A stretch of DNA of 64,000 nt from Myxococcales bacterium 68-20 (GTDB taxonomy: Bacteria; Myxococcota_A; Polyangia; Polyangiales; Polyangiaceae): contig MKVQ01000020.1 in assembly GCA_001899635.1 (NCBI GenBank), positions 100,051 through 164,050 on the forward strand. Reading direction: 5' to 3'. Positions 43,669 to 59,291 of this stretch are shown here, one piece after another. The position numbers and the translations under genes were made by a program. The first letter of the stretch is position 1. Each line of letters opens with the position of its first letter. A model generated the notes under the pieces. It searched no databases, was not told the DNA's origin, and saw only the letters and a list, made by a program, of their open reading frames with translations.

Positions 43669-44409
43669 TCACTCGTCATCGGATTCCTCGGTCTTGGCGT
43701 CGCCCGCCGTAGCTTCGGACTTCGCCGTCGGCGACTCCGCGGAGAGCTTCGTAGCGCACTCCTTGCAGAACTTCGCGTCGCGCTCGTTCGACTCGCCGCA
43801 CTTGGGGCACGTCACTCGCTCGGCCTTGCTCTCCGAGCCGCTCTTCGCGGTGGGCGCAGGCTTCTTGTCGCGGACATCGCTCGCGCTCGGAACGTCCTCG
43901 CTCGTGCCGGTCTCGAGGAGCCCGACCTTCGCGAGATGGCGCCGCGCGGCCTCCTCGGCCTTCGCGCGGTGCGGTGCGAGCGTCTCGTCGATCCGCCGGA
44001 GCACAGCCTTGAGCTCCTCGCGGTAGGTCGCCGAGATCTGCTCGAAATCCTCGTCCTCGAGCTTCCCGAGCGAGCGCTCGGTCTCGAGGTCCTTGAGCGC
44101 GCGGAGGAGCATCTTCTTCCGGCTCGCGAGCGCGTCGACGCCCTGCGCGGCCATGTCGAGTGCCTCGAGCTCCGGAGACAGAGCTGCATCGCCCGAGAGG
44201 ATGCGGAGGCTGCCCCAGAGGAGCGCGATGACGCCGAGCAGGAGCCCGGCCGCGAGCACGAGGATGCTCGTTGCCGGCCCGACCACCACGCCGACGATCC
44301 CCGCGGCCGCCACCGTGACGAGCGGGAGCCCGATCGCCACGCCTCGAGCGATGCGTTGTTCGTCGGACGCGCTTGCGTCTTCGCGAAGGGAGAGCGCGCT
44401 GTCACTCAT
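43669..44409 (-). CDS. Membrane protein with CcmI-like coiled coil and zinc ribbon
   Basis: 246 residues. Two membrane segments (about 23-70), then a charged helical stretch KDLETERSLGKLEDEDFEQI (about 110-130) of the kind found after the membrane helices in CcmI/CycH, and a C-terminal zinc ribbon CPKCGESNERDAKFCKEC (about 204-221). The start overlaps the stop region of ccmF by 8 nt, which shows tight operon coupling. CcmI holds apocytochrome c for heme ligation; that role here is inference. No TPR domain is present. Confidence 0.7.
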   Translation of the reverse strand: MSDSALSLREDASASDEQRIARGVAIGLPLVTVAAAGIVGVVVGPATSILVLAAGLLLGVIALLWGSLRILSGDAALSPELEALDMAAQGVDALASRKKMLLRALKDLETERSLGKLEDEDFEQISATYREELKAVLRRIDETLAPHRAKAEEAARRHLAKVGLLETGTSEDVPSASDVRDKKPAPTAKSGSESKAERVTCPKCGESNERDAKFCKECATKLSAESPTAKSEATAGDAKTEESDDE

Positions 44410-47400
44410 CGTCGAGGTCCTTCAGATCGTTGTCGATGCGGTCGTCGTAGTCGTCGCGCTTCGGCTCGTCCCCGCTGGCCTTGGCGTCGTCGTCCTTCTT
44501 CTTCGCCGACGATTCGTTGGCTCGCCAGCGACGGAGGACGAACGCGAGCGCGATTCCGCCGCCCGCGATCGCGAAGAGCGGAGCGACGTAGATCGCCTTC
44601 ATCGCGCCCTTGTCCGGCGGGATCGCGAGGGCCGCTGTGCCGTACTCGGCGGTGTAGTCATCGATGATGGTCTGGGCGGTGTCGCCCTTCGCGAGGCGCG
44701 CGCGGAGGCGTTCGCGGGTCTGGTCCGCGGTCGAGCAGGCGCACGTGGAGAGCAGCTCGCGCGGGCACGTCCCGCACATGCAGCGGAGCGCGCCGAACAC
44801 GGCCTTCTCCTTGGGATCGTCCATCTGGACGCTGCCGGAGTGTTGCGTCGCGGTGGGCTGGGCGAAGGCAGGCACGGGCAGGAGCGCGAGGACGATGCCG
44901 ATGGTCGTGCTCGCGGCGACGGCGCCCGTTCCCCGGGCGATGCGCCACGCACGCGACTCCTTCGGATCGAGCTCCGGCCACATGCAGACGAAGCTGCCCA
45001 TGATGAGGATGATCGCTCCGAACCAGATCCACCCGACGAGCGGATTGAGATGGATCTGGAGCGACGCGACCTTCGTCTCCGGGTTGATGCTCCCGACGAC
45101 GAGATAGAGGTCGTCGCGGACCGAGTGGAGCATCGACACCTCGGTCGTCGGCGACTCGGGCATCTTCTTGTAGATGAACTTCGCCGGATTGAGCTGGCCG
45201 ATCTCCCTGCCGTTCTCGTGGACGCGCACGTCGGCGAAGACCATCCGCTTGTTGTTGTCGACCTCCATGCGCGGGCCGACGTACTCCACCGTGAGCCGCT
45301 CGATCTGGTAGGTCTGACCCGGGCTCATCGACGTCTCGCGATCGACCGTCCACGACTTGCCGGTGAAGCCGAGGAACATGAAGACGATCCCGAGGTGGAC
45401 GACGTAGCCGCCGTAGCGACGGCGTCCCGTCGGGGGCAGACTGAGCGCCCAGACGAAGAACGTGATCGCCCCGCCCAAGGCGCAGAGCCAACCGACGATC
45501 TGGACGGGGAGGTGCAGAGCGCTCCCGGTGGTGTAGCGCGTGCCCAGCCAGGCCAGGAACGCGAGCCCGACGAGCCCGATCGAGGACTTCGCGAGCAATC
45601 CCTTCACGGTGTCGCCCGCTCGCGCCTGCGACCGATAGAGGAAGAAGAACTCCTGCCCGATGACGGCGAGGTTGAAGATCCCCAGCGAGAAGCCGAGGAC
45701 CGGCGTGTATGCGTTGAATGCGCGGAGGATGCTGCCGAGCGCGCCGCCGTAGATCGGTTCGCTCCACACGACGGCGGGGAAGCCGATCACCCTGCCGAGG
45801 ACGAAGTGCACCGCGACCGCGAAAAACGCGGCCGTCGTCGGGAACACGAAGGCGCGCTTCAGCGCCTCCGGCGACGTCTTCTTCCAGCCGAAGAGCGTGC
45901 CCACGCCCATCAGGAAGAACACGGTCAGCCCGAGGGGCTGCATCCACGCGTTGTAGTAGGGCGGACCGACGGTGACCTTCTCGTCCCAGAGCGCCTCGCT
46001 GACCATTGGGAAGGTGGTCGCCACGAGGACGAACAACATGATCCCGAGCAGGCCGTAGTTGTTCAGGAGGAAGGTGAACTCGCGCGAGAGGATCGACTCC
46101 ATCTGCGGGCGGTTCGGGGCGAGCTTGAGGCCGCGCGTCATGCGGCGGAACACGAGCTCGAGCGCAACGAAGACGGCGGCGCCGACGACGACCGAGAAGA
46201 CCGCGACGCGCACGGACGAGCTCATCGTGCCCATCTTGCCCGAGAGCACCCACGCGCCCGGAGCGAGGCCCGCCATCACGACCCAGCCGGCGGTGATCGC
46301 CGCGCCGCGGAGCACGTTCACCGGGGTCTCCGCCCAGGCGAGGATCGGTCGCCTGACTACGGCGAAGGCGCCCGCGGCCGCCGCCAGCGCGAGGCCACCG
46401 GCGACGAGGCCCATCGAACCGGCGAGCTCCTTCTTGAACCCGACGTTCGCGATCAGGATGAGGAGCCCACCGGTGCCGGCGCCGACGAGCACGGCGAGGC
46501 CGAGCGCGACGGCGCTCTTCGATCCGGCGAGTCGCTCCTTGTTCGAGACGCCCGGCTCGACCGAGCGGAGCTCCGGCCAGCGGTACAGGATCAAGGTCGC
46601 GCAGAACGCGGCGACGAGGGCGAGGAACCAGAGGAAGTACTCGCCGATCGACGACTGCGCGAAGGAGTGCACGCTCGCGATCGCGCCGGAGCGCGTGAGG
46701 AACGTGCCGAAGATCGTCATGAAGAACGTCAGGCAAATGAGGAAGACGTTCCAGACCTTCAGCATCCCGCGCCGCTCCTGGATCATCACGGAGTGCACGA
46801 ATGCCGCGAGGGAGAGCAGCGGCATGAAGGCCGCGTTCTCGACCGGGTCCCACGCCCAGTAGCCGCCCCAGCCGAGCTCCTCGTACGCCCAGAGCATGCC
46901 GAGCGTGTTCCCGATCGCGAGGAAGAGCAGCGAGAAGAGGCTGAACTTACGGGACGCCTGGATCCACTCCGCGTCGAGCCGGCCGGTGCAGAGGGCGGCG
47001 ACCGCGAACGCGAAGGGGATCGCGCACCCGACGAAGCCCACGTAGAGGCTCGGCGGGTGGATGATCATGTAGAAGTTCTGGAGGAGCGGATTCAGCCCCT
47101 CGCCGTCGGTGCGTGCACCCGAGACGCTCGTCGAGAACGGGTTCGCGGCGAACGCCATCAATACGCCGAAGAAGATGACGATCGCCATCAACGTCGCGAT
47201 GACGTACGGCTGCAGATCGAGGTGCTTCTTACCTAGCGCCCAGACGCATGCGCCGATGTATCCGCTCAGGAGGAAGAGCCACCACAGCAGCGAGCCGTCC
47301 TGTCCGCCCCAGAGCGCGGTCAGGAGGAATATCGTCGGCATGCTGCGATCGGAGTAGTGCGCGACGTAGCGAAGCCGGAAGTCGTGGCTGACGAAGGCAT

Positions 47401-47584
47401 ACGCGAGGCAGAGGACTGCGACCGCGATGAGCGCTACCGTGCCGTACGCGCCGAGGCGCGCCGCCTGGAGTGTCTTGATCCTGCCACTCGCTCCTGCCGA
47501 GAGCGAGACCGCGAAGGTGTAGCTGGCTACCACCATCACGGCGAGGAGCAGGGTGCTTCCGAAGAGCGGGAACGTGGACCACAT
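44402..47584 (-). CDS. ccmF: Cytochrome c maturation protein: CcmF fused to CcmH
   Basis: 1060 residues, far longer than the usual CcmF of about 650. The first about 850 residues are CcmF: many membrane helices, the heme-handling WWD motif WGGYWAWDPVENA (about 240-252), ALWGGQDGSLLWW, a conserved His set (IIHPPSLYVGF), an insertion in the middle, and the periplasmic domain before the last helix (LVGWIWFGAIILIMGSFVCMWP). After a second signal-like helix (GTGAVAASTTIGIVLALLPV, about 880-900) comes a CcmH domain: LRCMCGTCPRELLSTCACS (about 935-953) then a helical hairpin with IIDDYTAEYGTAAL, and a last membrane helix. CcmF and CcmH form the heme-lyase complex, so fusion joins two partners. First gene of a three-gene operon. 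Confidence 0.9.
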   Translation of the reverse strand: MWSTFPLFGSTLLLAVMVVASYTFAVSLSAGASGRIKTLQAARLGAYGTVALIAVAVLCLAYAFVSHDFRLRYVAHYSDRSMPTIFLLTALWGGQDGSLLWWLFLLSGYIGACVWALGKKHLDLQPYVIATLMAIVIFFGVLMAFAANPFSTSVSGARTDGEGLNPLLQNFYMIIHPPSLYVGFVGCAIPFAFAVAALCTGRLDAEWIQASRKFSLFSLLFLAIGNTLGMLWAYEELGWGGYWAWDPVENAAFMPLLSLAAFVHSVMIQERRGMLKVWNVFLICLTFFMTIFGTFLTRSGAIASVHSFAQSSIGEYFLWFLALVAAFCATLILYRWPELRSVEPGVSNKERLAGSKSAVALGLAVLVGAGTGGLLILIANVGFKKELAGSMGLVAGGLALAAAAGAFAVVRRPILAWAETPVNVLRGAAITAGWVVMAGLAPGAWVLSGKMGTMSSSVRVAVFSVVVGAAVFVALELVFRRMTRGLKLAPNRPQMESILSREFTFLLNNYGLLGIMLFVLVATTFPMVSEALWDEKVTVGPPYYNAWMQPLGLTVFFLMGVGTLFGWKKTSPEALKRAFVFPTTAAFFAVAVHFVLGRVIGFPAVVWSEPIYGGALGSILRAFNAYTPVLGFSLGIFNLAVIGQEFFFLYRSQARAGDTVKGLLAKSSIGLVGLAFLAWLGTRYTTGSALHLPVQIVGWLCALGGAITFFVWALSLPPTGRRRYGGYVVHLGIVFMFLGFTGKSWTVDRETSMSPGQTYQIERLTVEYVGPRMEVDNNKRMVFADVRVHENGREIGQLNPAKFIYKKMPESPTTEVSMLHSVRDDLYLVVGSINPETKVASLQIHLNPLVGWIWFGAIILIMGSFVCMWPELDPKESRAWRIARGTGAVAASTTIGIVLALLPVPAFAQPTATQHSGSVQMDDPKEKAVFGALRCMCGTCPRELLSTCACSTADQTRERLRARLAKGDTAQTIIDDYTAEYGTAALAIPPDKGAMKAIYVAPLFAIAGGGIALAFVLRRWRANESSAKKKDDDAKASGDEPKRDDYDDRIDNDLKDLDDE

Positions 47585-48192: not shown

Positions 48193-49275
48193 TCACGCGC
48201 GACGCGAGACGAGCGGCTCGAGCAGGCGGAGGCCCTCCTCGAAGCGAGCGGCATCACACGTCGCCCACGCGAGACGGAACGACTCGGGCGCGCCGAAGAA
48301 CGTGCCGGCACCGACGAGGACGCCCGTCTCGCGCGCATGTGCCTCGATGCGCGGCAAGAGCTCGCCGCGGCCCGGCAACGTGACGAGGCCGAAGAGCCCG
48401 CTCTCCGGAGCGCTCCAGTGCGCGTTCGGGAGCGAGGTGGCCCAGCGCGACGCGATCTCGCGCTTGCCGGCGAGGAGCACCTTCGCGCGCTTCGCGAGAC
48501 GGCCGATCTCGCCGAACAGCGCAGCGCCGTAGCTCGCATGAGCGAGCGGCATGTGACCGAGCGTGGCGACCGCCGCGGCGTCTGCGCGCAGAGCGATCTC
48601 TTCCGGTCCGAGGAGCCAGCCCAGGCGGTACATGCCGAGGCCGTAACACTTCGTCAGGCTCGCGACCGCGATGACGTTCTTGTCGAGCTTTCGCGCGCTC
48701 CGGCGGAACACGCCGTCCTCCGGGAGATCATCGAAGCCGGCATAGACCTCGTTCACGATCACGTAGGCGCCGCGCGCCTCCGCGATCGCCGCGAGCTCGC
48801 GGATGGTCTCGTCGGCGACGCGGACTCCGGTAGGGTTGTGCAGGCTGGTGACGACGATCGCGCGCGTGCGCGGTCCGATCGCCGCGGCCACGCGCTCGGG
48901 GAGGACGCGGAAGCCTTCCTCCGCGCGGCGCTCGAACGTACGCACCGTCGCGCCGAGGCCTTCGGCTGCGCGGGTGAGCGGCTCGTAGCCGGGATGTTCG
49001 ACGAGGACCTCGTCTCCCGGGGAGAGCGTCGCGGCGTAGGCGAGGAAGAACGCCTGCGTCGTCCCGAACGCAGGCGTCACCTCGGCTGGGGAGACGTCGT
49101 TGTACCGAGCGCAGGCGTCCTTCAGCGCCTGGTACGCGCGGGGATCGTCGATGTCCGGCGTCGGGAGCCCGAGCTCCGCCCATGTGACGAGGGGCGTTCC
49201 GCTCGACGCGAGGTCGTACGGGACCTTGCCGTAGAACTGCATCGCCCAGGCGATGTAGCGGGTCGTCCCGAACAT
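48193..49275 (-). CDS. Class I/II PLP-dependent aminotransferase
   Basis: 360 residues. Fold type I aminotransferase: cofactor-binding FGTTQAFFLAYAATLSPGDEVL, EHPGYEPL, the Asn contact in SLHNPTGVRV (about 145-154), the Asp/Tyr region VIVNEVYAGFDDL (Asn-Glu-Val-Tyr in place of the usual DEVY), the Schiff-base Lys in VASLTKCYGLGMYRLGWLLG (about 205-224), and a C-terminal arginine in FRLAWATC. Substrate is unknown; relatives act on amino acids. It is the last gene of the minus-strand run, 16 bp after the lipoprotein gene, so probably co-transcribed. Confidence 0.88.
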   Translation of the reverse strand: MFGTTRYIAWAMQFYGKVPYDLASSGTPLVTWAELGLPTPDIDDPRAYQALKDACARYNDVSPAEVTPAFGTTQAFFLAYAATLSPGDEVLVEHPGYEPLTRAAEGLGATVRTFERRAEEGFRVLPERVAAAIGPRTRAIVVTSLHNPTGVRVADETIRELAAIAEARGAYVIVNEVYAGFDDLPEDGVFRRSARKLDKNVIAVASLTKCYGLGMYRLGWLLGPEEIALRADAAAVATLGHMPLAHASYGAALFGEIGRLAKRAKVLLAGKREIASRWATSLPNAHWSAPESGLFGLVTLPGRGELLPRIEAHARETGVLVGAGTFFGAPESFRLAWATCDAARFEEGLRLLEPLVSRRA

Positions 49276-49291
49276 TTGCGCACCCCCCTCG

Positions 49292-49897
49292 TTACTTCTT
49301 CTTCAGCGAGAGCTTTCCCTCACGCACGACCGCGGCGCTCGACTCGGCGAGCGAGAGCTTTCCCTCGACCGCGCCGGCGGCCTGGGTGGCGACGAGCGTC
49401 CCCGTCAGCCCGCTGTCCGCTGGGTCCTTTCGGCGGACATTTCCGCGGATCTCGCCGTCGATCACGCGCCCGTCCACGACGGCCGGTGCGGCCGGCCCCG
49501 AGTCGATCGTGCCGGAGACCACGCCCTCGGCATCGACCGAGAGCGTGAGCGTGCCTTCGCCGACGTGCTTCGCCGGATCGTCCGGCGCCTGCTTCACGCG
49601 GGCGTAGTCCTTCGTCTCGGGGATGTACATCTTGGCCGGCGCGAGCGAGTAGCTGCCCTCGTACGAGGCCGCCTGGCCGGTCGTCTTCGCCGGCGCGGGG
49701 GCTTCGGCGGCCCCGGCTTCCGTGCTCGCGGTCGTGCCCGTGCTCGCGTCTGCGCTCGGAGCAGCCGATGCGGGCGGCGCGGTCTTCTCCGCGTCGCCTC
49801 CGGACTTCGGGCAGCCCCCCAGCCCGAACGCAAAGACGATCACCGACATGCTCGCGATCCAGTGTCGAGACGATCGGTGAACACACGAGCCCATCAT
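49292..49897 (-). CDS. Lipoprotein following the SctQ-like gene
   Basis: 201 residues. GGAGG lies 6 nt before ATG 49897. Signal peptide with lipobox near residue 29 (FGLGGC), Ala/Ser/Pro/Thr-rich linker to about residue 75, then a compact beta-rich domain (SYEGSYSLAPAKMYIP, GTLTLSVDAEGVVSGTIDSG, GEIRGNVRRKD, GTLVATQAAGAVEGKLSL) with regular short strands. It overlaps the SpoA-domain gene by 4 nt. I do not recognise the family. The coupling suggests a shared envelope function, but nothing in the sequence shows it. Confidence 0.7.
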   Translation of the reverse strand: MMGSCVHRSSRHWIASMSVIVFAFGLGGCPKSGGDAEKTAPPASAAPSADASTGTTASTEAGAAEAPAPAKTTGQAASYEGSYSLAPAKMYIPETKDYARVKQAPDDPAKHVGEGTLTLSVDAEGVVSGTIDSGPAAPAVVDGRVIDGEIRGNVRRKDPADSGLTGTLVATQAAGAVEGKLSLAESSAAVVREGKLSLKKK

Positions 49898-51054
49898 CGA
49901 TTTCCTCCAGGGCGTCCGAGAATGCGGACGCCGTATTCGCCGTCGACCTGAACGAGCTCGCCTCGTGCGACCTCGACACCGCCGACGCGCAAGATCGCCG
50001 GATCCCCGAGCTTGCGCCCGAGCGTGACCACGTCACCGGGCGCGAGCGAAGCCCATTCGCGCGCCTTCATCTCGAGCGCACCGAGCTCCACTCGTACGAC
50101 GACGGGCGCGTCCTCGATCACTTCGAGAGTCGGGTTCGGCTCATCGGACATCGCTTCTCCGTTCGGCGCGCTCGGCTCGTGATCCCACGGATGACGTTCG
50201 AGGCGGTCGGACCGTAGCACGAGGCGCGCACCAACGCCGAGATCGCCGGTGATTCCACGCTCTGCCTTGGCGGCGACGAACGCTACCGGACCGACGAGCA
50301 TGCCGCCCTCGTCACGAAGCGAAAAGCTCGGGAGAACGAAGGCGTCACCGGCACGTAACGAGGCGAGCGTGGAGCGTCCCGCGAGGCACGTCGCTGCGAC
50401 GAGCGGTAGGGCGATCGGAGCGTCGCCCATCGCAACGAGCGCATCCTGCATCGAGGATGCATCATGCTCGAGGTTCGGCGGTGGCAGCTCGGCGAGCGGA
50501 ACGCTGACGCGCGCGTCGAACGCCTCGGCGCCGACCACGACCGTGAGCCATGTGGTGGCGACCCGACCTTGGACGCCGGCGAGATCGCGCGCAAGCGCGG
50601 CCGCGGGCCCGGCGGCGACGACGCGGAGCGGGATGCCTGCGTGCGCGCGCCGGAGCGCGGCGTGCAAGACGGCCGCGAGGGCGCCGGCGACCTCCGCGCT
50701 CGGAGCGCGCGACGCGTCGGTCACCTTCGGCGCGCGCTGGCGAAGGGCGCGGGCGACGAGGTTCGCTGCGAGGGCGGGCTCGACGTCGACGAGAGCGGAG
50801 CGATGAAGACCGATCTGCTCCGCCGGCGAGAACGCGACGCCGACGCCGTCGGTCGGGATGCGCGCGGAGTCGAACGGCCGCGTGCGGCGGATCGCGATCG
50901 ACACGGCCTCGCCCGTGAGCTCGGCGAGCGCGCCCGCGATCGCGTCGGTCCGCACGAACCTCGTCGAAGCTCCACGGAGGCGCGCGGCGGTGCGGATCTC
51001 TTCGAGCGAGATCGCCGGGAGTGCAGCGTAAGGAAACGGCTGCGGCGTGCTCAC
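49894..51054 (-). CDS. SpoA/FliN-domain protein, SctQ (type III secretion C-ring) type
   Basis: 386 residues from GTG 51054, which overlaps the methyltransferase stop (GTGA) and follows GGAAG; a longer start at 51108 would overlap the upstream gene by 58 bp. The C-terminal about 75 residues are a SpoA (FliN/FliM_C) domain: VVVRVELGALEMKAREWASL, APGDVVTLGRKLGDPAILRV, GGVEVARGELVQVDGEYGVR. The N-terminal 300 residues are Ala/Arg-rich with weak similarity to the SctQ/YscQ N-terminal region. SctQ builds the cytosolic sorting platform of type III secretion or, as FliM/N, the flagellar C-ring. No other secretion or flagellar gene is in the window, so this may be an orphan. Confidence 0.7.
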   Translation of the reverse strand: MSTPQPFPYAALPAISLEEIRTAARLRGASTRFVRTDAIAGALAELTGEAVSIAIRRTRPFDSARIPTDGVGVAFSPAEQIGLHRSALVDVEPALAANLVARALRQRAPKVTDASRAPSAEVAGALAAVLHAALRRAHAGIPLRVVAAGPAAALARDLAGVQGRVATTWLTVVVGAEAFDARVSVPLAELPPPNLEHDASSMQDALVAMGDAPIALPLVAATCLAGRSTLASLRAGDAFVLPSFSLRDEGGMLVGPVAFVAAKAERGITGDLGVGARLVLRSDRLERHPWDHEPSAPNGEAMSDEPNPTLEVIEDAPVVVRVELGALEMKAREWASLAPGDVVTLGRKLGDPAILRVGGVEVARGELVQVDGEYGVRILGRPGGNR

Positions 51055-51743
51055 GGCTTCCGGAAGGTGAGCGTCCAGTGACGATCGCTCGTCAGCTGGA
51101 CCGAACATCCGGCGAGGCCCGACGCGTTCGCCATCGCGGCGACCTCGTCCACCGTCAGCGCCGCATGGAGGGACGCCCGCAGCAGGTCGCGCTGGTTCTC
51201 GAACGATGCCTTCGCCGTGGGATTCGCCGGCGGCTCACCTGCGTAGAGCGCGACCAGGCGATCGACGTCGGCTTCGGTCGCCGGTCGCGCGAGATCGCGG
51301 ATGAAGACGAGCCCTCCGCTCGCGGTCACGCGGGCCATCTCCGCCAGCACGGCGCGGGGGTCGGGGATGTGATGGATGATCGAGTTCGAGACGGTCGTCG
51401 TGAAGGAGCCGTCTCCGTAAGGCATGCGCTTCGCGTCGATCTTCTCGAGGACCACGCGGTCCTGGAAGCCGGCGCGAGCGACGTTCTTCTCCCCGAGGGC
51501 GAGCATGTGCGTCGCCAGATCGATCGCGACGACCCGCAGGTCCGGCGCGCGCTTGCAGAGCTCGGTCGGAATGAGCGCGGTGCCGGTCCCGACGTCGAGC
51601 ACCGACGGACCGAGCTCGCCCTGCGCGAGGAGATCGGCGCAGAAGCGCTCGTTGACGAGCGCGTGGTCCATCGCGTCGTAGTCGCGCGCCTCCTCCGGAG
51701 TGTCCATCACCTCGGGCTCGAGGACCCTCTGCAGCGTCGACAT
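51051..51743 (-). CDS. Class I SAM-dependent methyltransferase
   Basis: 230 residues. SAM-binding motif I VLDVGTGTALIPTEL (about 48-62), acidic residue at the end of strand 2 (VVAIDLATHM), motif SFTTTVSNSIIHHIPDP (about 112-128) and LAEMARVTASGGLVFIRDL, as in UbiE/COQ5-like enzymes. The substrate is not evident. It sits 66 bp after the hydrolase gene and overlaps the SctQ-like gene by 4 nt, bridging the metabolic and secretion-type parts of the run. UbiE-like methylation together with a Coq4-type protein upstream might point to quinone or lipid chemistry, which is inference. Confidence 0.85.
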   Translation of the reverse strand: MSTLQRVLEPEVMDTPEEARDYDAMDHALVNERFCADLLAQGELGPSVLDVGTGTALIPTELCKRAPDLRVVAIDLATHMLALGEKNVARAGFQDRVVLEKIDAKRMPYGDGSFTTTVSNSIIHHIPDPRAVLAEMARVTASGGLVFIRDLARPATEADVDRLVALYAGEPPANPTAKASFENQRDLLRASLHAALTVDEVAAMANASGLAGCSVQLTSDRHWTLTFRKP

Positions 51744-51809
51744 GGCCGGCTCACGCTGCCAACTTGCTCGGTTCTTCGCAAGAGAAACCCCTGGCCGCCT
51801 CCGGCGGTC

Positions 51810-52739
51810 CTATCTCCGCAGGCCGACTTTCCGGGCGTGTGTAGCGATCGCACCGGCCAGGAGCGGGGTGACCGGCGCAGGGAAGCCGTGCCCCATCCCT
51901 CGAATGACGAGCAACTCGGCTCCAGGAATGAGCCGTTCCATGGCGACCGCTCCTCGAAGCGGCAAGAGTGGATCTTGCGAGCCGTGGATGACGAGCGTCG
52001 GCGTCTTCACGTAGCGGAGCTGCGCACGCCGCCGACCAGAGCTCTCGAAGATCGCGCCGAGGTGTCGTGCGCTCGCCACCGGAGAGGTGCCACCGTCCAC
52101 CTGTCCCACCGCGAGCGTACGCGCCGCAGCTTCGTCGAACGGGAACGCGTCGCCGTTCAAGAGACGGAAGGTCTCGACCAGCCGCTCGATCTGCGCGTCT
52201 CGTTCGCTCGGCAAGGGCGTCAGGAGAGCTCGAAGCGCAGAGACCTTTCCCACGGAGTAGCGGCGTCCTCCGGGACTCGACATGACGGACGTCATCGTGC
52301 GGAGGCGCTCGGGACGGAGGAGCGCCATCGTCTGAGCGATCATCCCTCCCATCGACGCGCCCGCGACGTGAAAGCTCTCGTGTCCCAGTGCGCTCATGAG
52401 ACCGAATGCGTCTTCGGCCATGTCCTCCAGGCGATAAGGCACGTCGACCGAGAGCCCGAAGAGCACACGACGCAAGGTCGACGGAATGTCCGGAGGCGGC
52501 GCGTCGATGCGTGAGGAATCGCCGGCGTCCCGGTTGTCCATGCGTACGACGCACAAGCCCGTGCCAGCGAGCGCGTTGCACAGCCCGTCCGGCCAGAAGG
52601 TCCGCCGCATCGAGAGCCCGGGGATGAGCAGAAGGGGCTCGCCGGAGCCGCGAACGTCGTACGCGATTTCGACGGCGCCGACGCGGACGCGTCCTTCCCG
52701 CTTCGAGCTCGTGCTCGATGACGGCAGCTCAGAGAGCAT
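51810..52739 (-). CDS. Alpha/beta-hydrolase
   Basis: 309 residues. Typical alpha/beta-hydrolase fold: oxyanion region LLLIPGLSMRRTFWPDGL, nucleophile elbow GASMGGMIAQ (Ser near residue 129), catalytic Asp in VIHGSQDPLLPLRG (near 257) and His in RGMGHGFPAPV (near 284). Probably an esterase or lipase; the sequence does not give the substrate. Its start overlaps the end of the SDR gene by 11 bp. A hydrolase of this class next to a Baeyer-Villiger monooxygenase fits ester cleavage after ketone oxidation. Confidence 0.9.
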   Translation of the reverse strand: MLSELPSSSTSSKREGRVRVGAVEIAYDVRGSGEPLLLIPGLSMRRTFWPDGLCNALAGTGLCVVRMDNRDAGDSSRIDAPPPDIPSTLRRVLFGLSVDVPYRLEDMAEDAFGLMSALGHESFHVAGASMGGMIAQTMALLRPERLRTMTSVMSSPGGRRYSVGKVSALRALLTPLPSERDAQIERLVETFRLLNGDAFPFDEAAARTLAVGQVDGGTSPVASARHLGAIFESSGRRRAQLRYVKTPTLVIHGSQDPLLPLRGAVAMERLIPGAELLVIRGMGHGFPAPVTPLLAGAIATHARKVGLRR

Positions 52740-53554
52740 CCGATGTCCTTTGCATGCGACCGAGCACCTTCCAGTACGAGACGGGGGCGACTCGCTCGAG
52801 GACCGAGAGCGCGACCGCGTCGTTGCCGACGATCACGCGAGGCTTGCGTGCTTCCATGCCGCGCACGATCGTCTCGCCCGCCACGGCGGGGGAGAGGCGA
52901 AGGAACTTGTCGAAGGCCGCGCGTCGACGCGCGATCTCCTCCTGGTCGACCCCTCGAGGGACACGCGCGTTCTTCGCGATGGAGGTCGCGACCCCGCCCG
53001 GATGTACGACCGTGACGCCCACCGTGGACCCCTCGAGCTCGTGCCGGAGCGACTCGGAGAATCCGCGCACTGCGAACTTGCTCGCGACGTAGGCGGTCTG
53101 TCCAGGCGGTGCGACCAGACCAAAGACACTCGATAGGTTCACGATGCGCGCGTCGTCGCTCCGCCGTAGCAGCGGCAGGAAGGCACGCGTCATCTGCACG
53201 ACGCCGAAGAAGTTGATCGAAAAGAGCCAATCGAAGTCGTCTTCACCGACCTGTTCGAAGGTGCCACCTACGGCGACGCCCGCGTTGTTCACGAGCAGAT
53301 CGACGCGTGGATGCTCCGCCTGAACTTCGGCGGGGAACTTCGTGACGGCGGCTCGATCGCTGACGTCGAGGCGGTGTCGGCTGACCAGGAGCGCTTTGTT
53401 CGGCACGAGGTCGGCGGTCTCCATGAGGCCAGCCTCGTTCACGTCGGCAAGCGCGAGGTGACATCCGCGCCGCGCGAGGGACAAGGCGATGGCTCGACCG
53501 ATGCCGCTCGCAGCACCCGTGACGACCGCGGTGCGGTCACGAAGGTCCATTCGC

Positions 53555-53562
<8 letters not shown>
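52729..53562 (-). CDS. Short-chain dehydrogenase/reductase (SadH-like)
   Basis: 277 residues with GGAGG 8-11 nt before ATG 53562. Classical SDR: TGAASGIGRAIA (about 15-26), DVSDR, NNAGVAVGG (about 91-99), catalytic Ser in NLSSVFGLV, YVASK (Tyr/Lys about 157-161), and PGGVATSI. It overlaps both neighbours (8 bp with the monooxygenase, 11 bp with the hydrolase). Such SDRs oxidise secondary alcohols to ketones, which would feed the adjacent Baeyer-Villiger enzyme. The C-terminal extension (about 225-277) is similar to that of SadH-type dehydrogenases. Confidence 0.9.
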
Positions 53563-55087
<1,525 letters not shown>

Positions 55088-55101
55088 GGTTTCCTCGCGT
55101 C

Positions 55102-55833
55102 CTACGTGACGATGCCTTGCTCACGGAGATCCGCAGTTCGCATCACCGTGTAGACGGGTGGTGCTCCGAGCCCGAGGAGCATACGGACGTCATCGATGGG
55201 CTTCTCGAGCAGCGACTCCCAGTCTCGAGAGGGGAGCCAAGCTGCTCGCCTGCCTCGGCGGTAGCCGTCGCGCACGATCGAGACGACATCCGTGCGTCCC
55301 GCGCCCTTGAGGACGGCAGCGAGGACGATCAGCCCGATCCCCAAGTTGCCCATCTGGGCGAAGGTGAATGCGAGCAGGCCCACTTCACCGAGAACGTCGC
55401 CCTGGTAGCCCGTTGCCGCATGCCACAAGTCATGCGTATCGCGCAGGCGATCGGAGATGAACTCCAGCTCCGCATCCTCGGCTTCGAGCCGTCTGTCGAC
55501 TTCGCTCGCATCGCGGATGCCTTGAGCCGAGATGTTCTCCCTCTCGACGAATGCGAGGTACGCGCGGCCGAGCGAGCCATCGGGCATCGCGCGGAGCCGA
55601 TCTCGATCGGCGAGGATCCCGACGATGTCGGGTCTGTCTCGCAGGATGCGCTGGCCCGTCTCGGTCTTCTGGAATTCCGCTCGGAGGCGCTCAGTGTGTC
55701 GCGTGCTCGACAGCGCTTCGATCAAGTTGAAGACCTGGGGGAGGTCGTCGGGATTCTCGATGAGTGCGCGAAGTGCCCGCGCCGCCCGAGTGAGATCGAC
55801 GAAGCGGCTGGCGACGGAGCGACTCGGATTCAT
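55102..55833 (-). CDS. Coq4-family protein
   Basis: 243 residues from ATG 55833. The hallmark Coq4 metal-binding motif HDxxH-x11-E is present as HDLWHAATGYQGDVLGE (about 135-151), followed by a helical segment LLAFTFAQMGNLGIGLIVLAAVL. In eukaryotes Coq4 acts in the ubiquinone-synthesis complex; bacterial homologues are often found next to oxidoreductases in steroid or lipid degradation clusters. It is the first gene of the minus-strand run and is divergent from the PucR-type regulator. The upstream extension of the frame to 56004 would overlap the divergent promoter and is not used. Confidence 0.85.
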   Translation of the reverse strand: MNPSRSVASRFVDLTRAARALRALIENPDDLPQVFNLIEALSSTRHTERLRAEFQKTETGQRILRDRPDIVGILADRDRLRAMPDGSLGRAYLAFVERENISAQGIRDASEVDRRLEAEDAELEFISDRLRDTHDLWHAATGYQGDVLGEVGLLAFTFAQMGNLGIGLIVLAAVLKGAGRTDVVSIVRDGYRRGRRAAWLPSRDWESLLEKPIDDVRMLLGLGAPPVYTVMRTADLREQGIVT

Positions 55834-56023
55834 GACGATCGTGTCCTCTCTTCGGCGAGCGCGCTGCAGAGCTGCTCGGCGAAGGCGTCCGGCGGTGCAG
55901 CCTTCGACGGGAGGCCATCCGAGGTGGAGCTCACGTCTCTCCAGCGCGGTGCGGGGCTCATCTGCTCCTCCGTACCGTCGGCTGTCCTCCTGGACAAGGT
56001 GCAAGAAGCACCATCAATCGCTA

Positions 56024-56036
56024 TAGATTGTGCAGC
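56024..56036 (+). promoter_or_regulatory. Putative leaderless promoter of the PucR-type gene
   Basis: TAGATT (56024-56029; overlapping TATAGA at 56022) is 7 nt before ATG 56037 with no Shine-Dalgarno. A short dyad TGTCC/GGACA (55983-55995) lies 40 bp upstream in the space shared with the Coq4-like operon. Confidence 0.45.
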
Positions 56037-57290
56037 ATGCACCACGACTCCACGTCTCCTTCGCGTTCGAAGGCACTCCCGTCGAAGCGCGTTCGCGAGC
56101 TGATCCGGCAGGGAGCCGAGCTCGCGTTGGGGGCGCCGCCAGAGTGGTTGGAACAGGCCTATGCCGAGACGCTCGCGACCAACCCGATCTTCGCGGTGGA
56201 CCCTGCGCTCGCGGAGTCCTCGCGGCACAACACGCGCGCGATGGTGTTCCACTGGGCCGCCGCCAACATGCGCAATCCTGGGGCACCGGTCGCTCCGAAC
56301 CTGGGCCCCGACGCACTCGACCTCGCGCGCGACCTCGTCCGCCGAGGCGTCTCGGACTTCGCGCTCCGCACGTTCCGGGTGGGCCAGGATCTGGCGTTCC
56401 GGCGCTGGATGCAGATCGCCTTCGGGCTCACGGCCGACCACGATGAGCTGCGCGAGATGCTCGATGTGACGGCGCGGTCCATCGCCGAGTACGTCGATGC
56501 GACGATCGAGGGACTCTCGGCCCGCATGAAGGCCGAGCGCGACGAGCTGACGCGCGGGACGCACGCAGAACGTCGTGAGGTCATCGCTCTCTTGATCGAT
56601 GGTGCGCCCATCCCTACGCGCGACGCGTCCTGGCGCCTCGGCTATGAGCTCGAGGGCACGCATCGGGCAGCGGTCGTGTGGAGTGCCGCGGCCGAGACCG
56701 ATCTCGCAGACATCGAAGCTGTCGCCGTGGCGATTGCGCGTGACGCAGGCGCATCGCGCCGGCTGGTCGTCGCCGCGAGCGCCGCGAGCGCGTGGGTATG
56801 GGTGCCCGCTCGAGGAGACTTCGAGCCGCTCGCATTGCGCGCCGCTCTACGCGCCAAGCCCGGGATGCGTGTCGCGCTCGGCTCGCTCGGGCGCGGCGTC
56901 GATGGATTCCGACGCAGCCATCTCGACGCGCTCACGGCGCAGCGAACCGTCGCGCGACTCGGGATGCGCGAGCCGTTGGTCACGTACGACATGATCCGGC
57001 TCGTCGACCTCGTCACACAGGATGTCGACGCAGCCGACACCTTCATCGCGCACACGCTCGGCAAGCTCGCGACCGCGAGCGCCGATCTTCGCGTGTCGCT
57101 CCGCGCCTATCTCGAGGAGGGATGCAACGCCTCGCTCGCCGCAGCCCGTCTCGGCACGCATCGAAACACCCTGCTTCGCAGGCTCGCCCGCGCCGAGGAC
57201 CTACTCCCACGGCCGCTCGATGGGCATCGAACGCATGTCGCGGTCGCGCTCGAGATCCTCGCGTGGCGAGTTGCACGGACCATTCCGTGA
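56037..57290 (+). CDS. PucR/CdaR-type transcriptional regulator
   Basis: 417 residues from ATG 56037 (a TTG three codons upstream is possible). The C-terminal helix-turn-helix of the PucR family is clear: LRAYLEEGCNASLAAARLGT then HRNTLLRRLARAEDLL (about 360-396). The middle contains a GGDEF-like degenerate region typical of CdaR proteins (VALGSLGRGVDGFRRSHLDALTA in parts), and the N-terminus is helical (RVRELIRQGAELALG). It is divergent from the Coq4/monooxygenase operon across a 203-bp gap and is its most likely regulator, presumably responding to a substrate or product. Confidence 0.88.
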   Translation: MHHDSTSPSRSKALPSKRVRELIRQGAELALGAPPEWLEQAYAETLATNPIFAVDPALAESSRHNTRAMVFHWAAANMRNPGAPVAPNLGPDALDLARDLVRRGVSDFALRTFRVGQDLAFRRWMQIAFGLTADHDELREMLDVTARSIAEYVDATIEGLSARMKAERDELTRGTHAERREVIALLIDGAPIPTRDASWRLGYELEGTHRAAVVWSAAAETDLADIEAVAVAIARDAGASRRLVVAASAASAWVWVPARGDFEPLALRAALRAKPGMRVALGSLGRGVDGFRRSHLDALTAQRTVARLGMREPLVTYDMIRLVDLVTQDVDAADTFIAHTLGKLATASADLRVSLRAYLEEGCNASLAAARLGTHRNTLLRRLARAEDLLPRPLDGHRTHVAVALEILAWRVARTIP

Positions 57291-58464
57291 GACTACCGCC
57301 AAGCGCGTAGTGCGGGCGGCGCCACGTTCAACCGCAAGCTCGCGATCAAGGCGAGGGGCGACTTCGTCGAGGTCGAGGCCGGCCCCACAGGAATCACGTT
57401 GACCGTCAACGGGGTGCAGGAAACTCCCCCGAACGTCACACCCGGCGGGCTGCAAATCACGGGGAGCGGGGCGAGCACCCTTGGTCGTGCTCCCCAACGG
57501 CACGAGTGTCGGCGCGACGCGTGTGACGGCAGACCCGGCCTACCTGGACTTCACGATCGTCGCATCGACCGCACAGGTGCAGCTAGCGTCCGGGTTGTGT
57601 GCGGCGACGCAGGGCTCGAGCTCTCCGGTAGCTGTATGGGAGTACACCGACCTGCGATCGGACGTGCGGGGCCAAGCGACGGCGCTCGATCGAGCCCCTG
57701 CGGGAGCTCCGATTCGCTACCGTGTCGACGTCGCGAACGCAGGCACGTATGCCCTCAACTCGATCGCGTTCGCTGCGCCGCCGAGCTGGGGACCGGCCAC
57801 GTCGTGGACCTGCGTCGGCCTCAACGGCGCGACGTGTCCCGCGGCGACGGGAACGGGCAACCCCGCGGGCCCGCTCGCGCTCCCTGCCTCGAGCACCTTG
57901 CGATACGAAATCACGGCGCTCGCGCCGAACCCCATCGTCGAAGGGACGGTGCTCGCGCGCGCGACCGCTCCAGCCTGGACGGTGCGCGCCGCCACGAGTG
58001 TCAACGACGCCAACCTCACGTGGGCTGGGCGCTACGTGGACGCTGACGGCGACGGCTATGGCGCCGAGCCCATGGTGTTCACCGCCCCCGGCGATGACCT
58101 GGTTTCGATCGGCGGAGACTGCGACGACAGCGATCCGACCGTGGTGCCGGGGACGGCCGCCTGCTGCGCTCAGCCGACCGATTGTGACGACGGAGACCCC
58201 TGCACCGAGGACGTGTGCACGGCGGGCGCGTGCAGCCATTCCCCGACGTGCAGCGCGGACGCCGAGCCGGATGCGGGCGCGGCCGACTCCGACCCAGGTA
58301 CACCACCGGCCGAGCCGACCGAGGCCGTCGCGTCCTCCGACGGGTGCGGCTGCCGCGTGGCCGGTGTTCCATCGCCGGCGAGCTCGAGCCTTCTCGCGCT
58401 CGGGCTCGCGGGGCTCGTGGGGCTCGCGCGCATTGGGGCGCGCCGTCGCGATGGGCGTCCTTGA
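57291..58464 (+). pseudogene. Truncated, frameshifted secreted protein with MYXO-CTERM tail
   Basis: Coding sequence begins immediately after the regulator stop without any start codon: FNRKLAIKARGDFVEVEAGP, then PTGITLTVNGVQETPPNVTP and STL (57327-57482). A one-base frame change near 57480 is needed to continue into VVLPNGTSVGATRVTADP and a 325-residue remainder. That part has DADGDGYG and GGDCDDSDPTVVPG (MopE-like calcium-binding type motifs), a CDDGDPCTEDVC Cys-rich segment, and a C-terminal DGCGCRVAG, hydrophobic helix and RRR, the MYXO-CTERM sorting-tag pattern. The N-terminal part and signal peptide are missing, so this is most likely a remnant; translation from the TTG at 57481 would give a protein without export signal. 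Confidence 0.6.
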
Positions 58465-58630
58465 CTCCGACGCCCACGGACGCCACGCCCCTCACGAGTC
58501 GACAGCCGGCACCTTCCACGACGGCGGGTGACGCGGACGGCAGCGCGACGACGCGCGACGCCTCGACGAAGGACACCGCGCCACCGTCGAGCTCCGATGG
58601 GCTTCCGCCGCCTCCGGTCGTGCTTTCTGG

Positions 58631-58643
58631 TACGCTCCGCGCG
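58631..58643 (+). promoter_or_regulatory. Putative leaderless promoter of the TPR gene
   Basis: TACGCT (58631-58636) is 7 nt before ATG 58644 with no Shine-Dalgarno, the same layout as at moxR, zapA and the PucR-type gene. Confidence 0.4.
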
Positions 58644-59291
58644 ATGGCGGTCGCTCGCGGTGCTCGCTCGAAGGTGTTCTCTCTGATCCTCGCCGTCGCC
58701 ATTCCAGCGATCGCGCTCGTGCCGCTCGTCGCCTCGGGCGAGCCGAAGTCGGCGAAGCCCGCGGCCAAAGAGGCCGACCGCGCCGAGAAGTACGACCCCG
58801 ACAACATCACCGCGATCAGCCAGTACATGGAGACGATCGCGAAGGGGAACGAGCGCTTTGTCGCCAAGGATCACACGACGGCGATCGACACGTACAAGAA
58901 GGCGATCCAGCTCAGCCCGCGAAACCCGCTTGCTCACCTCCTCCTCACGGAGGCCTATCTCGTGACCGGGAACCTGGGCGAGGCGGAGGCCGCGATCCAG
59001 CAGGCGTACGAGGCGGACTCGAAGAACGCGACGCTGCGCGGGCACGTCCTGCTCGTTCGTGCCGATGTCTTCGAGCGCCACAAGAAGTGGGATCAGGCGA
59101 AGCTCGCCTGGCAGGCGTACACGGAGCACGCGTCGAAGCTCGGCGCCGATGCCGGTGTCTACCCGCAGACGGGCGCCGAGCGCCTGAAGGCGATCCAGAA
59201 GATGCTCGATCTCGACAAGGCCTACGCCGTCGTGCGCGAGCGCATCGCGGCCGAGAAGGCCGACGCCGGCAAGGCCGCGCCGAAGAAGTAG
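58644..59291 (+). CDS. Exported TPR-repeat protein
   Basis: 215 residues. Signal peptide (hydrophobic core about 12-30, SLILAVAIPAIALVPLVASG), a short charged linker, then about three tetratricopeptide repeats (GNERFVAKDHTTAIDTYKKA, NPLAHLLLTEAYLVTGNLGE, VRADVFERHKKWDQAKLAWQ) spanning about 65-170, and a Lys/Ala-rich C-terminal helix. TPRs mediate protein contacts; the partner is unknown. It lies between the MYXO-CTERM remnant and a long repeat region and has its own apparent leaderless promoter. Confidence 0.8.
   Translation: MAVARGARSKVFSLILAVAIPAIALVPLVASGEPKSAKPAAKEADRAEKYDPDNITAISQYMETIAKGNERFVAKDHTTAIDTYKKAIQLSPRNPLAHLLLTEAYLVTGNLGEAEAAIQQAYEADSKNATLRGHVLLVRADVFERHKKWDQAKLAWQAYTEHASKLGADAGVYPQTGAERLKAIQKMLDLDKAYAVVRERIAAEKADAGKAAPKK

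What the first reader, a model, noticed from the sequence alone, without database searches (positions are those of the whole stretch)
48193..57290. Eight-gene Coq4/Baeyer-Villiger operon with divergent PucR-type regulator
Coq4-like protein, Baeyer-Villiger monooxygenase, SDR, hydrolase and methyltransferase are tightly packed (overlaps of 4-11 bp, gaps of 14-66 bp). Alcohol to ketone to ester to acid is a coherent route. The monooxygenase, SDR and hydrolase set resembles the mycobacterial mymA operon, but Coq4, the SpoA protein and the PucR-type regulator are additions. Possible substrates are lipids or sterol-like compounds.
Basis: partly seen in the sequence, partly recalled or inferred. Interest (0 to 1): 0.55.

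Follow-up and report, generated by a model that had tools for sequence, protein, structure and literature searches.

The report
Inserted Coq4–Baeyer-Villiger gene module
A bacterium carries an inserted block of one switch gene and four enzyme genes that probably breaks down greasy ketone-like molecules, and one of the enzymes, from a family known for making coenzyme Q, appears to have been paired with this kind of pathway more than once.

Summary
The genes are real, but this is not one eight-gene operon. In five congeners the same flanks lie 12-266 bp apart where the window has about 6.8 kb. That 6.8 kb (51793-58607) holds the hydrolase (ABH), SDR, Baeyer-Villiger monooxygenase (BVMO), Coq4, the divergent PucR regulator and one unknown gene; MT-SpoA-LP-AT is an older cassette of the genus. 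The enzyme block is a genuine module: Minicystis rosea has BVMO-SDR-ABH-Coq4, a Polyangiaceae MAG has BVMO then a fused ABH-Coq4, and Cupriavidus campinensis has BVMO, an unrelated hydrolase and Coq4. One joint clade of the linked copies is rejected strongly for Coq4 (p-AU 4e-34) and modestly for BVMO (0.024), so the pairing probably arose twice. Between PucR and its target lie two GTGCWNNNTGCAC palindromes 31 bp apart; a pattern search of 183 genomes hit five genomes not used to define it, and three of these sites lie at a PucR-homologue promoter. Likely work: alcohol to ketone to ester to acid on hydrophobic substrates, with Coq4 acting on the released acid (inferred). It works like mymA/AlmA-type BVMO routes but is not a mymA operon.

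The parts
51793..58607 (.). about 6.8 kb inserted segment, absent from the same site in congeners
   Evidence: blastn: window 48208-51792 and 58608-59273 are 12 bp apart in L244 (G693) and, with edges 51791/58608, 68 bp apart in L245 (G690); 157-266 bp apart with looser edges in L246, L247, L250
56037..57290 (+). PucR-type regulator (GGDEF_2 + HTH_30), Rv1453-like
   Evidence: PF13556, PF17853; NF050824 477 bits, below its cut-off of 600
55999..56042 (.). putative operator: two GTGCWNNNTGCAC palindromes, 31 bp start to start, the second overlapping the PucR start
   Evidence: same 44-bp layout at five other PucR promoters
55102..55833 (-). Coq4-family protein, 243 aa, HDxxHx11E at residue 134
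   Evidence: PF05019 100.5 bits, cut-off 22.9; motif; PDB relatives 6e12, 3msq
53555..55087 (-). type I Baeyer-Villiger monooxygenase, 510 aa, fingerprint FGGSIVHPQHWP at residue 163
   Evidence: PF00743; fingerprint and two Rossmann motifs; BVMO structures hit
52729..53562 (-). short-chain dehydrogenase/reductase, YVASK active site
   Evidence: PF00106; motif
51810..52739 (-). alpha/beta hydrolase (ABH), GASMG nucleophile elbow
   Evidence: PF00561; motif; macrolide-esterase models are the best NCBIfam hits but far below cut-off
57481..58464 (+). unknown, Cys-rich, hydrophobic C-terminus; inside the inserted segment, role in module unclear
   Evidence: ORF; only a sub-threshold Pfam match
51051..51743 (-). 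UbiE-like methyltransferase (MT); first gene of the older cassette, not part of the module
   Evidence: conserved beside SpoA in congeners
49894..51054 (-). SpoA (FliN/SctQ-type C-terminus) protein; older cassette
   Evidence: PF01052; TIGR02551 73 bits, below cut-off 100.8
49292..49897 (-). LP, lipoprotein-like by eye, no family; older cassette
48193..49275 (-). PLP-dependent aminotransferase (AT); older cassette
   Evidence: PF00155

Best explanation
The segment 51793-58607 is an inserted, self-regulated catabolic module. SHOWN from sequence: a PucR-type regulator is divergent from four co-directional, nearly touching enzyme genes (Coq4, BVMO, SDR, hydrolase); the block lies in the MT/TPR intergenic region that congeners keep empty; the same enzymes are linked elsewhere. 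INFERRED: the SDR oxidises a secondary alcohol to a ketone, the BVMO inserts oxygen to give an ester, the hydrolase splits the ester to an acid and an alcohol, and Coq4, by analogy with human COQ4 (carboxyl replaced by hydroxyl), acts on the released acid. The new alcohol or phenol could re-enter at the SDR step. PucR binds the two palindromes and, because one overlaps its own start, controls itself and the enzyme operon. MT-SpoA-LP-AT is a separate, older unit that may receive read-through.
For: Empty site in five congeners; no hit to ABH, SDR, BVMO, Coq4 or PucR in the 12 congener or relative loci fetched around the MT/SpoA cassette. M. rosea BVMO-SDR-ABH-Coq4 at 82, 82, 79 and 72% identity. 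ABH-Coq4 fusion in the MAG ACE_MYX1. BVMO-hydrolase-Coq4 in Cupriavidus campinensis and a BVMO-Coq4 pair with a gap of about 1 kb in G538. Joint clade rejected for Coq4 (p-AU 3.7e-34) and BVMO (p-AU 0.024). PucR divergent from BVMO in G717, G735, G808 and on a Rhodococcus fascians plasmid. Palindromes: 2 sites in the window against 0.14 matches expected by chance; 3 new 44-bp sites at PucR promoters. BVMO, SDR, hydrolase and Coq4 motifs intact; H, D, H, E in 73 of 73 Coq4 rows. AlmA acts on aliphatic ketones (PMC12449030, passages); EthA and MymA oxidise 2-octanone and ethyl 3-oxohexanoate (PMC9044951, passages); human COQ4 is an oxidative decarboxylase (PMC11495197, passages).
Against: No expression or enzyme data. 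In the Coq4 and BVMO neighbourhoods fetched from the Myxococcota sample, only one (G051) besides the window links the two, so the pairing is rare. PucR-BVMO-ABH-SDR sets without Coq4 exist (G735; R. fascians lacks SDR and Coq4), so Coq4 is not required. The M. rosea, MAG and Cupriavidus copies have a TetR-type regulator, not PucR. In three of five empty-site congeners the aligned edges are loose. The control pattern (reversed) hits 32 of 183 genomes, more than the 8 of the real pattern, so counts alone prove nothing; the evidence is location. No promoter-like site was found. Decarboxylation of an aliphatic acid by Coq4 has no precedent that I know of.
Confidence: 0.6

Rival explanations
1. One eight-gene operon under PucR, with the methyltransferase and aminotransferase as further steps of the same pathway and SpoA as an accessory protein.
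For: All eight genes are co-directional with gaps of at most 66 bp; no terminator-like site was found between ABH and MT, so read-through is possible; the MT is UbiE/COQ5-like, which would fit a Coq4 context.
Against: MT-SpoA-LP-AT stands without the four enzymes in congeners; the 49 bp upstream of MT that match the congeners' MT promoter region are kept in the window. In M. rosea, G051 and C. campinensis no MT, SpoA or AT match lies within the fetched loci.
Confidence: 0.15
2. Detoxification of a foreign polyketide, macrolide or redox-active aromatic compound rather than carbon catabolism.
For: The best NCBIfam hits of the hydrolase are macrolide esterases, though far below cut-off (129.6 of 420 bits); Rv1453, a relative of the regulator, is tied to clofazimine susceptibility and to the neighbouring qor gene (PMC10580819, abstract and passages).
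Against: No transporter or resistance gene in the segment; related BVMOs act on simple ketones.
Confidence: 0.25
3. Coq4 has no catalytic role here: it binds and presents a hydrophobic intermediate, as a scaffold, to the hydrolase and BVMO.
For: A structural role of Coq4 in the CoQ complex has been proposed (PMC11495197, passages); fusion to the hydrolase fits substrate presentation.
Against: The putative metal-site residues are kept in 73 of 73 rows.
Confidence: 0.35
4. The segment is ancestral and was lost in the congeners.
For: The related BVMO family is common in the phylum (168 of 282 genomes).
Against: Five congeners lack it at the same site, and none of the 11 other congener genomes searched has a Coq4 above 51% identity.
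Confidence: 0.08

Closest known systems
mymA operon of mycobacteria (gene content recalled)
   Same: BVMO, SDR and alpha/beta hydrolase genes together; BVMO of the EthA/MymA/AlmA kind
   Different: No AdhD, FadD13 or wax-ester synthase gene seen here; regulator is PucR-type, not AraC-type VirS; Coq4 present
AlmA (Acinetobacter), a BVMO acting on long-chain aliphatic ketones
   Same: Same kind of enzyme; an Acinetobacter relative is 49% identical to the window BVMO
   Different: That Acinetobacter gene (L217) sits beside rplQ without SDR, hydrolase or Coq4 matches; it was not shown here to be AlmA itself
Rv1453 and qor of Mycobacterium tuberculosis
   Same: Regulator of the same PucR sub-family next to an oxidoreductase gene that it binds (passages)
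   Different: Target there is qor, not a BVMO operon; the window protein scores below the NCBIfam cut-off (477 of 600 bits)
Coq4 of coenzyme Q biosynthesis
   Same: PF05019 over cut-off; HDxxHx11E motif
   Different: No CoQ genes in the module; context is catabolic
Coq4-bearing catabolic clusters on sphingomonad plasmids (L144, L145)
   Same: Coq4 in one cluster with a BVMO-like protein and an alpha/beta hydrolase
   Different: The BVMO-like protein is distant (78 bits) and P450, ferredoxin and acyl-CoA dehydrogenases are present

Membership tests
Type I Baeyer-Villiger monooxygenase | FxGxxxHxxxW(P/D) fingerprint between two GxGxxG/A motifs | tested here: met
   FGGSIVHPQHWP at 163; GAGLSG at 15; GSGATA at 188
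Type I Baeyer-Villiger monooxygenase | converts ketones to esters | not testable with these tools
   needs an assay
Coq4 family | PF05019 over the curated cut-off | tested here: met
   100.5 bits, cut-off 22.9
Coq4 family | HDxxHx11E metal motif (motif name recalled) | tested here: met
   residue 134; four residues kept in 73 of 73 rows
Coenzyme Q biosynthesis Coq4 | works in ubiquinone synthesis | not tested
   ubiquinone genes in the genome were not searched for; myxobacteria use menaquinone (recalled)
mymA operon | BVMO, SDR and hydrolase together | tested here: met
mymA operon | AraC-type VirS regulator (recalled) | tested here: not met
   PucR-type
mymA operon | AdhD and FadD13 genes (recalled) | tested here: not met
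   none among the nine proteins of the locus
Rv1453-type regulator (NF050824) | score over the curated cut-off of 600 | tested here: not met
   477.2 bits over almost the full length: a relative, not a called member
PucR-type regulator | HTH_30 C-terminal domain | tested here: met
   PF13556 55 bits, cut-off 27
Eight-gene operon | gene set kept together in relatives | tested here: not met
   the set splits four plus four
Eight-gene operon | one transcript | not testable with these tools
   needs RNA

The most novel reading that the evidence does not exclude
Bacterial Coq4-family enzymes are general oxidative decarboxylases (carboxyl to hydroxyl) that catabolic routes recruit: here Coq4 takes the acid freed by the hydrolase and returns an alcohol or phenol to the SDR, closing an SDR-BVMO-esterase-Coq4 loop that shortens or opens a hydrophobic substrate, in some lineages with the hydrolase and Coq4 as one two-step protein, all under a PucR regulator with a twin GTGCA-N3-TGCAC operator.
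Probability: 0.22. Interest if true: 0.75.

Novelty: new variant of a known kind. Interest (0 to 1): 0.5.

Why it matters
Coq4 is known from coenzyme Q synthesis, and its chemistry was assigned only recently. A Coq4 that is repeatedly placed beside, and once fused to, the hydrolase of a Baeyer-Villiger route, in a compact inserted module, gives a direct genetic and biochemical handle on what Coq4 proteins do outside coenzyme Q synthesis. The locus also yields a concrete, testable operator for a PucR-type regulator beside BVMO genes in two phyla. It corrects the operon boundary: four of the eight genes belong to something else.

Tried and rejected
Rejected: the eight-gene operon. Rejected: Coq4 as a feature private to this genome. 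Rejected as membership: mymA operon. Tried without use: AlphaFold2 model of the ABH-Coq4 fusion from 12 sequences, mean pLDDT 71.0, pTM 0.47, hydrolase half poorly modelled, so nothing is said about how the two active sites face each other. Tried: sigma-70 scan, no promoter-like site; one terminator-like site, fewer than shuffles give. Tried: gene caller of my own for neighbourhood counts; it is crude and missed some genes, so its counts are lower bounds. The printed 'changes' statistics of the trees did not test the question and were replaced by AU tests, whose groups were named after the trees had been seen.

Literature: searches for Coq4 with Baeyer-Villiger, PucR with Baeyer-Villiger and 'Coq4 family protein' with bacteria found 0 papers; Coq4 with myxobacteria found 1, seen as a listing only. 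These cover one open-access library only. PMC10807437 (AlmA as a BVMO) is not held; its result is taken from passages of PMC12449030.
Full report
WHAT IS THERE. The window is G000:C20:100051-164050 of an 11.9 Mb genome assembly; its searched relatives are grouped as Myxococcota. Pfam gives aminotransferase, no family for the 201-aa protein, FliMN_C/SpoA, methyltransferase, alpha/beta hydrolase, short-chain dehydrogenase, flavin monooxygenase, Coq4 and PucR HTH_30 with GGDEF_2. Active-site motifs are intact in the four enzymes: BVMO fingerprint FGGSIVHPQHWP, SDR YVASK, hydrolase GASMG, Coq4 HDxxHx11E. Coq4 most likely starts at 55833.

TWO UNITS, NOT ONE. Among 78 relatives, homologues of SpoA, the aminotransferase and the methyltransferase lie next to each other in many congeners. 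I fetched 12 loci around this cassette (L244-L253, L256, L257) and scanned them with the window's genes: none has a match to the module's ABH, SDR, BVMO, Coq4 or PucR. L257 shows the methyltransferase only, L249 ends just beyond it, and L251 has about 2.3 kb between MT and the TPR gene. DNA alignment of five congeners gives the empty site: in L244 window base 51792 and base 58608 are separated by 12 bp, in L245 68 bp, and in L250, L247 and L246 157, 205 and 266 bp with less tight edges. The insertion ends 17 bp past the stop of the hydrolase gene. No recombinase, insertion sequence or target duplication was seen at the ends, but no dedicated search for one was made. GC content of the segment (0.679) is close to its flanks (0.689, 0.706); third-position GC of the module genes (0.775-0.843) is lower than that of MT and AT (0.896, 0.889). 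Of the 11 other congener genomes, 7 have some Coq4 homologue, the best at 51% identity.

THE MODULE ELSEWHERE. A scan of about 85,000 species genomes with two Coq4 sequences gave 18 loci; 2 of the 18 also carry a BVMO of this kind. Minicystis rosea DSM 24000 has a divergent TetR-type gene, then BVMO, SDR, hydrolase, Coq4 and a PF10118 protein, with identities of 82, 82, 79 and 72%. The Polyangiaceae MAG ACE_MYX1 (G051, L034/L148) has a divergent TetR-type gene, BVMO and one 561-aa protein with hydrolase and Coq4 domains. Cupriavidus campinensis has a divergent TetR-type gene, BVMO, a hydrolase with no BLASTP match to the window's at 1e-8, and Coq4. One of 20 fetched Pseudomonadota Coq4 regions, from 19 genomes with a match among 299, shows the same BVMO-gap-Coq4 layout (G538, L197). 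In the Myxococcota sample Coq4 is found in 93 of 282 genomes and the BVMO in 168 of 282; of 40 Coq4 regions fetched one (G051) has the BVMO and of 40 BVMO regions fetched none has Coq4. In the lists a distant monooxygenase (32% identity) lies about 2 kb from a Coq4 in G084, not followed up. So the pairing is rare but recurrent. The hydrolase searched in 107 genomes of M. rosea's family matches above 50% identity in only two, M. rosea itself and a second genome at the same contig place as G051.

INDEPENDENT PAIRING. In a tree of 73 Coq4 rows the linked myxobacterial copies (window row L074, L147, L034) form a clade (100/96) and the linked betaproteobacterial-type copies (L146, L173 = G538) another (100/99). 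Holding all five together lowers the likelihood by 198 units, p-AU 3.7e-34. For the BVMO (55 rows) the same test gives 49.6 units and p-AU 0.024, a modest rejection. The groups were named after the trees were seen. Together with the unrelated hydrolase in Cupriavidus this favours at least two assemblies of BVMO, hydrolase and Coq4; an old module with replaced genes is not excluded. Fusions fit functional linkage: hydrolase-Coq4 (L034), BVMO-SDR (L136), and a BVMO within a protein annotated as alpha/beta hydrolase in Deinococcus radiodurans (L211).

THE SWITCH. Among 78 relatives the regulator matches strongly in three genomes (own, G717 twice, G735) and weakly in a fourth. In G717 it is divergent from a BVMO, in G735 from BVMO-ABH-SDR with touching junctions, and on a Rhodococcus fascians plasmid from BVMO-ABH. 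In the window, G717 and G735 the intergenic region holds two GTGC-N5-GCAC palindromes 31 bp apart; one overlaps the regulator's start. The pattern, with the gap allowed to be 17-19, was then searched in 183 genomes of the order: 8 genomes match. Three are the defining ones. Of the other five, three (G805, G806, G808) have the 44-bp form and a PucR homologue directly beside it, G808 with a BVMO and an SDR fragment as well; two (G691 with a 43-bp form, G813 with a short tandem repeat) have no PucR match in the stretch examined (16.5 kb and 3 kb). The reversed control pattern hits 32 of 183 genomes, so the number of hits carries no weight; position does. The R. fascians region has one palindrome, GGTGCACTGTGCACC. 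A second PucR copy in G717 has no such site.

HOW IT WORKS. Related BVMOs oxidise aliphatic ketones (PMC12449030 and PMC9044951, passages). With an SDR and an esterase this gives alcohol to ketone to ester to acid plus alcohol. Human COQ4 replaces a carboxyl by a hydroxyl group (PMC11495197, passages). The fusion of hydrolase and Coq4 suggests that Coq4 receives the hydrolase product, the acid; this step is inference. For the regulator, the passages on Rv1453 say that the protein can bind the neighbouring qor gene and inhibit it (PMC10580819), which is a precedent for control of an adjacent oxidoreductase; the ligand is unknown.

VERDICT. New variant of a known kind: a BVMO-SDR-esterase route that has taken in Coq4 and a PucR switch, inserted as a unit. 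Ordinary in its parts, unusual in the repeated Coq4 pairing and in the clean insertion.

Noticed in passing
48193-51743: MT-SpoA-LP-AT cassette next to a CcmF-like gene is conserved in the genus; a SctQ/FliN-type SpoA protein between a methyltransferase and an aminotransferase has no obvious role.
   Followed up: partly
44402-47584: CcmF-like protein of 1060 aa with a C-terminal CxxC region that looks by eye like CcmH: a possible CcmF-CcmH fusion.
   Followed up: no
57481-58464: Secreted-looking, Cys-rich protein with a hydrophobic C-terminus inside the inserted segment, on the opposite strand to the enzymes.
   Followed up: no
L039:4846-11033: A second Coq4 of the same genome lies beside a long SDR-containing multifunctional protein, a thiolase-like protein (by eye) and a divergent regulator-like gene: another lipid-type context.
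   Followed up: partly
78 Coq4 loci: In 24 of 78 loci a TetR-like gene (by eye) lies on the opposite strand near Coq4, suggesting that many bacterial Coq4 genes are inducible single units.
   Followed up: partly
L144, L145: Sphingomonad plasmids carry Coq4 in a cluster with P450, ferredoxin, acyl-CoA dehydrogenases, a BVMO-like protein and hydrolases.
   Followed up: partly
L136:7589-10003: BVMO and SDR fused in one 804-aa protein.
   Followed up: partly
L211:4933-7434: Deinococcus radiodurans plasmid MP1 gene annotated as alpha/beta hydrolase contains a BVMO of this kind.
   Followed up: no
L254:4673-6727: Second PucR paralogue about 10 kb from the first, without the palindromes and without a BVMO beside it.
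   Followed up: no
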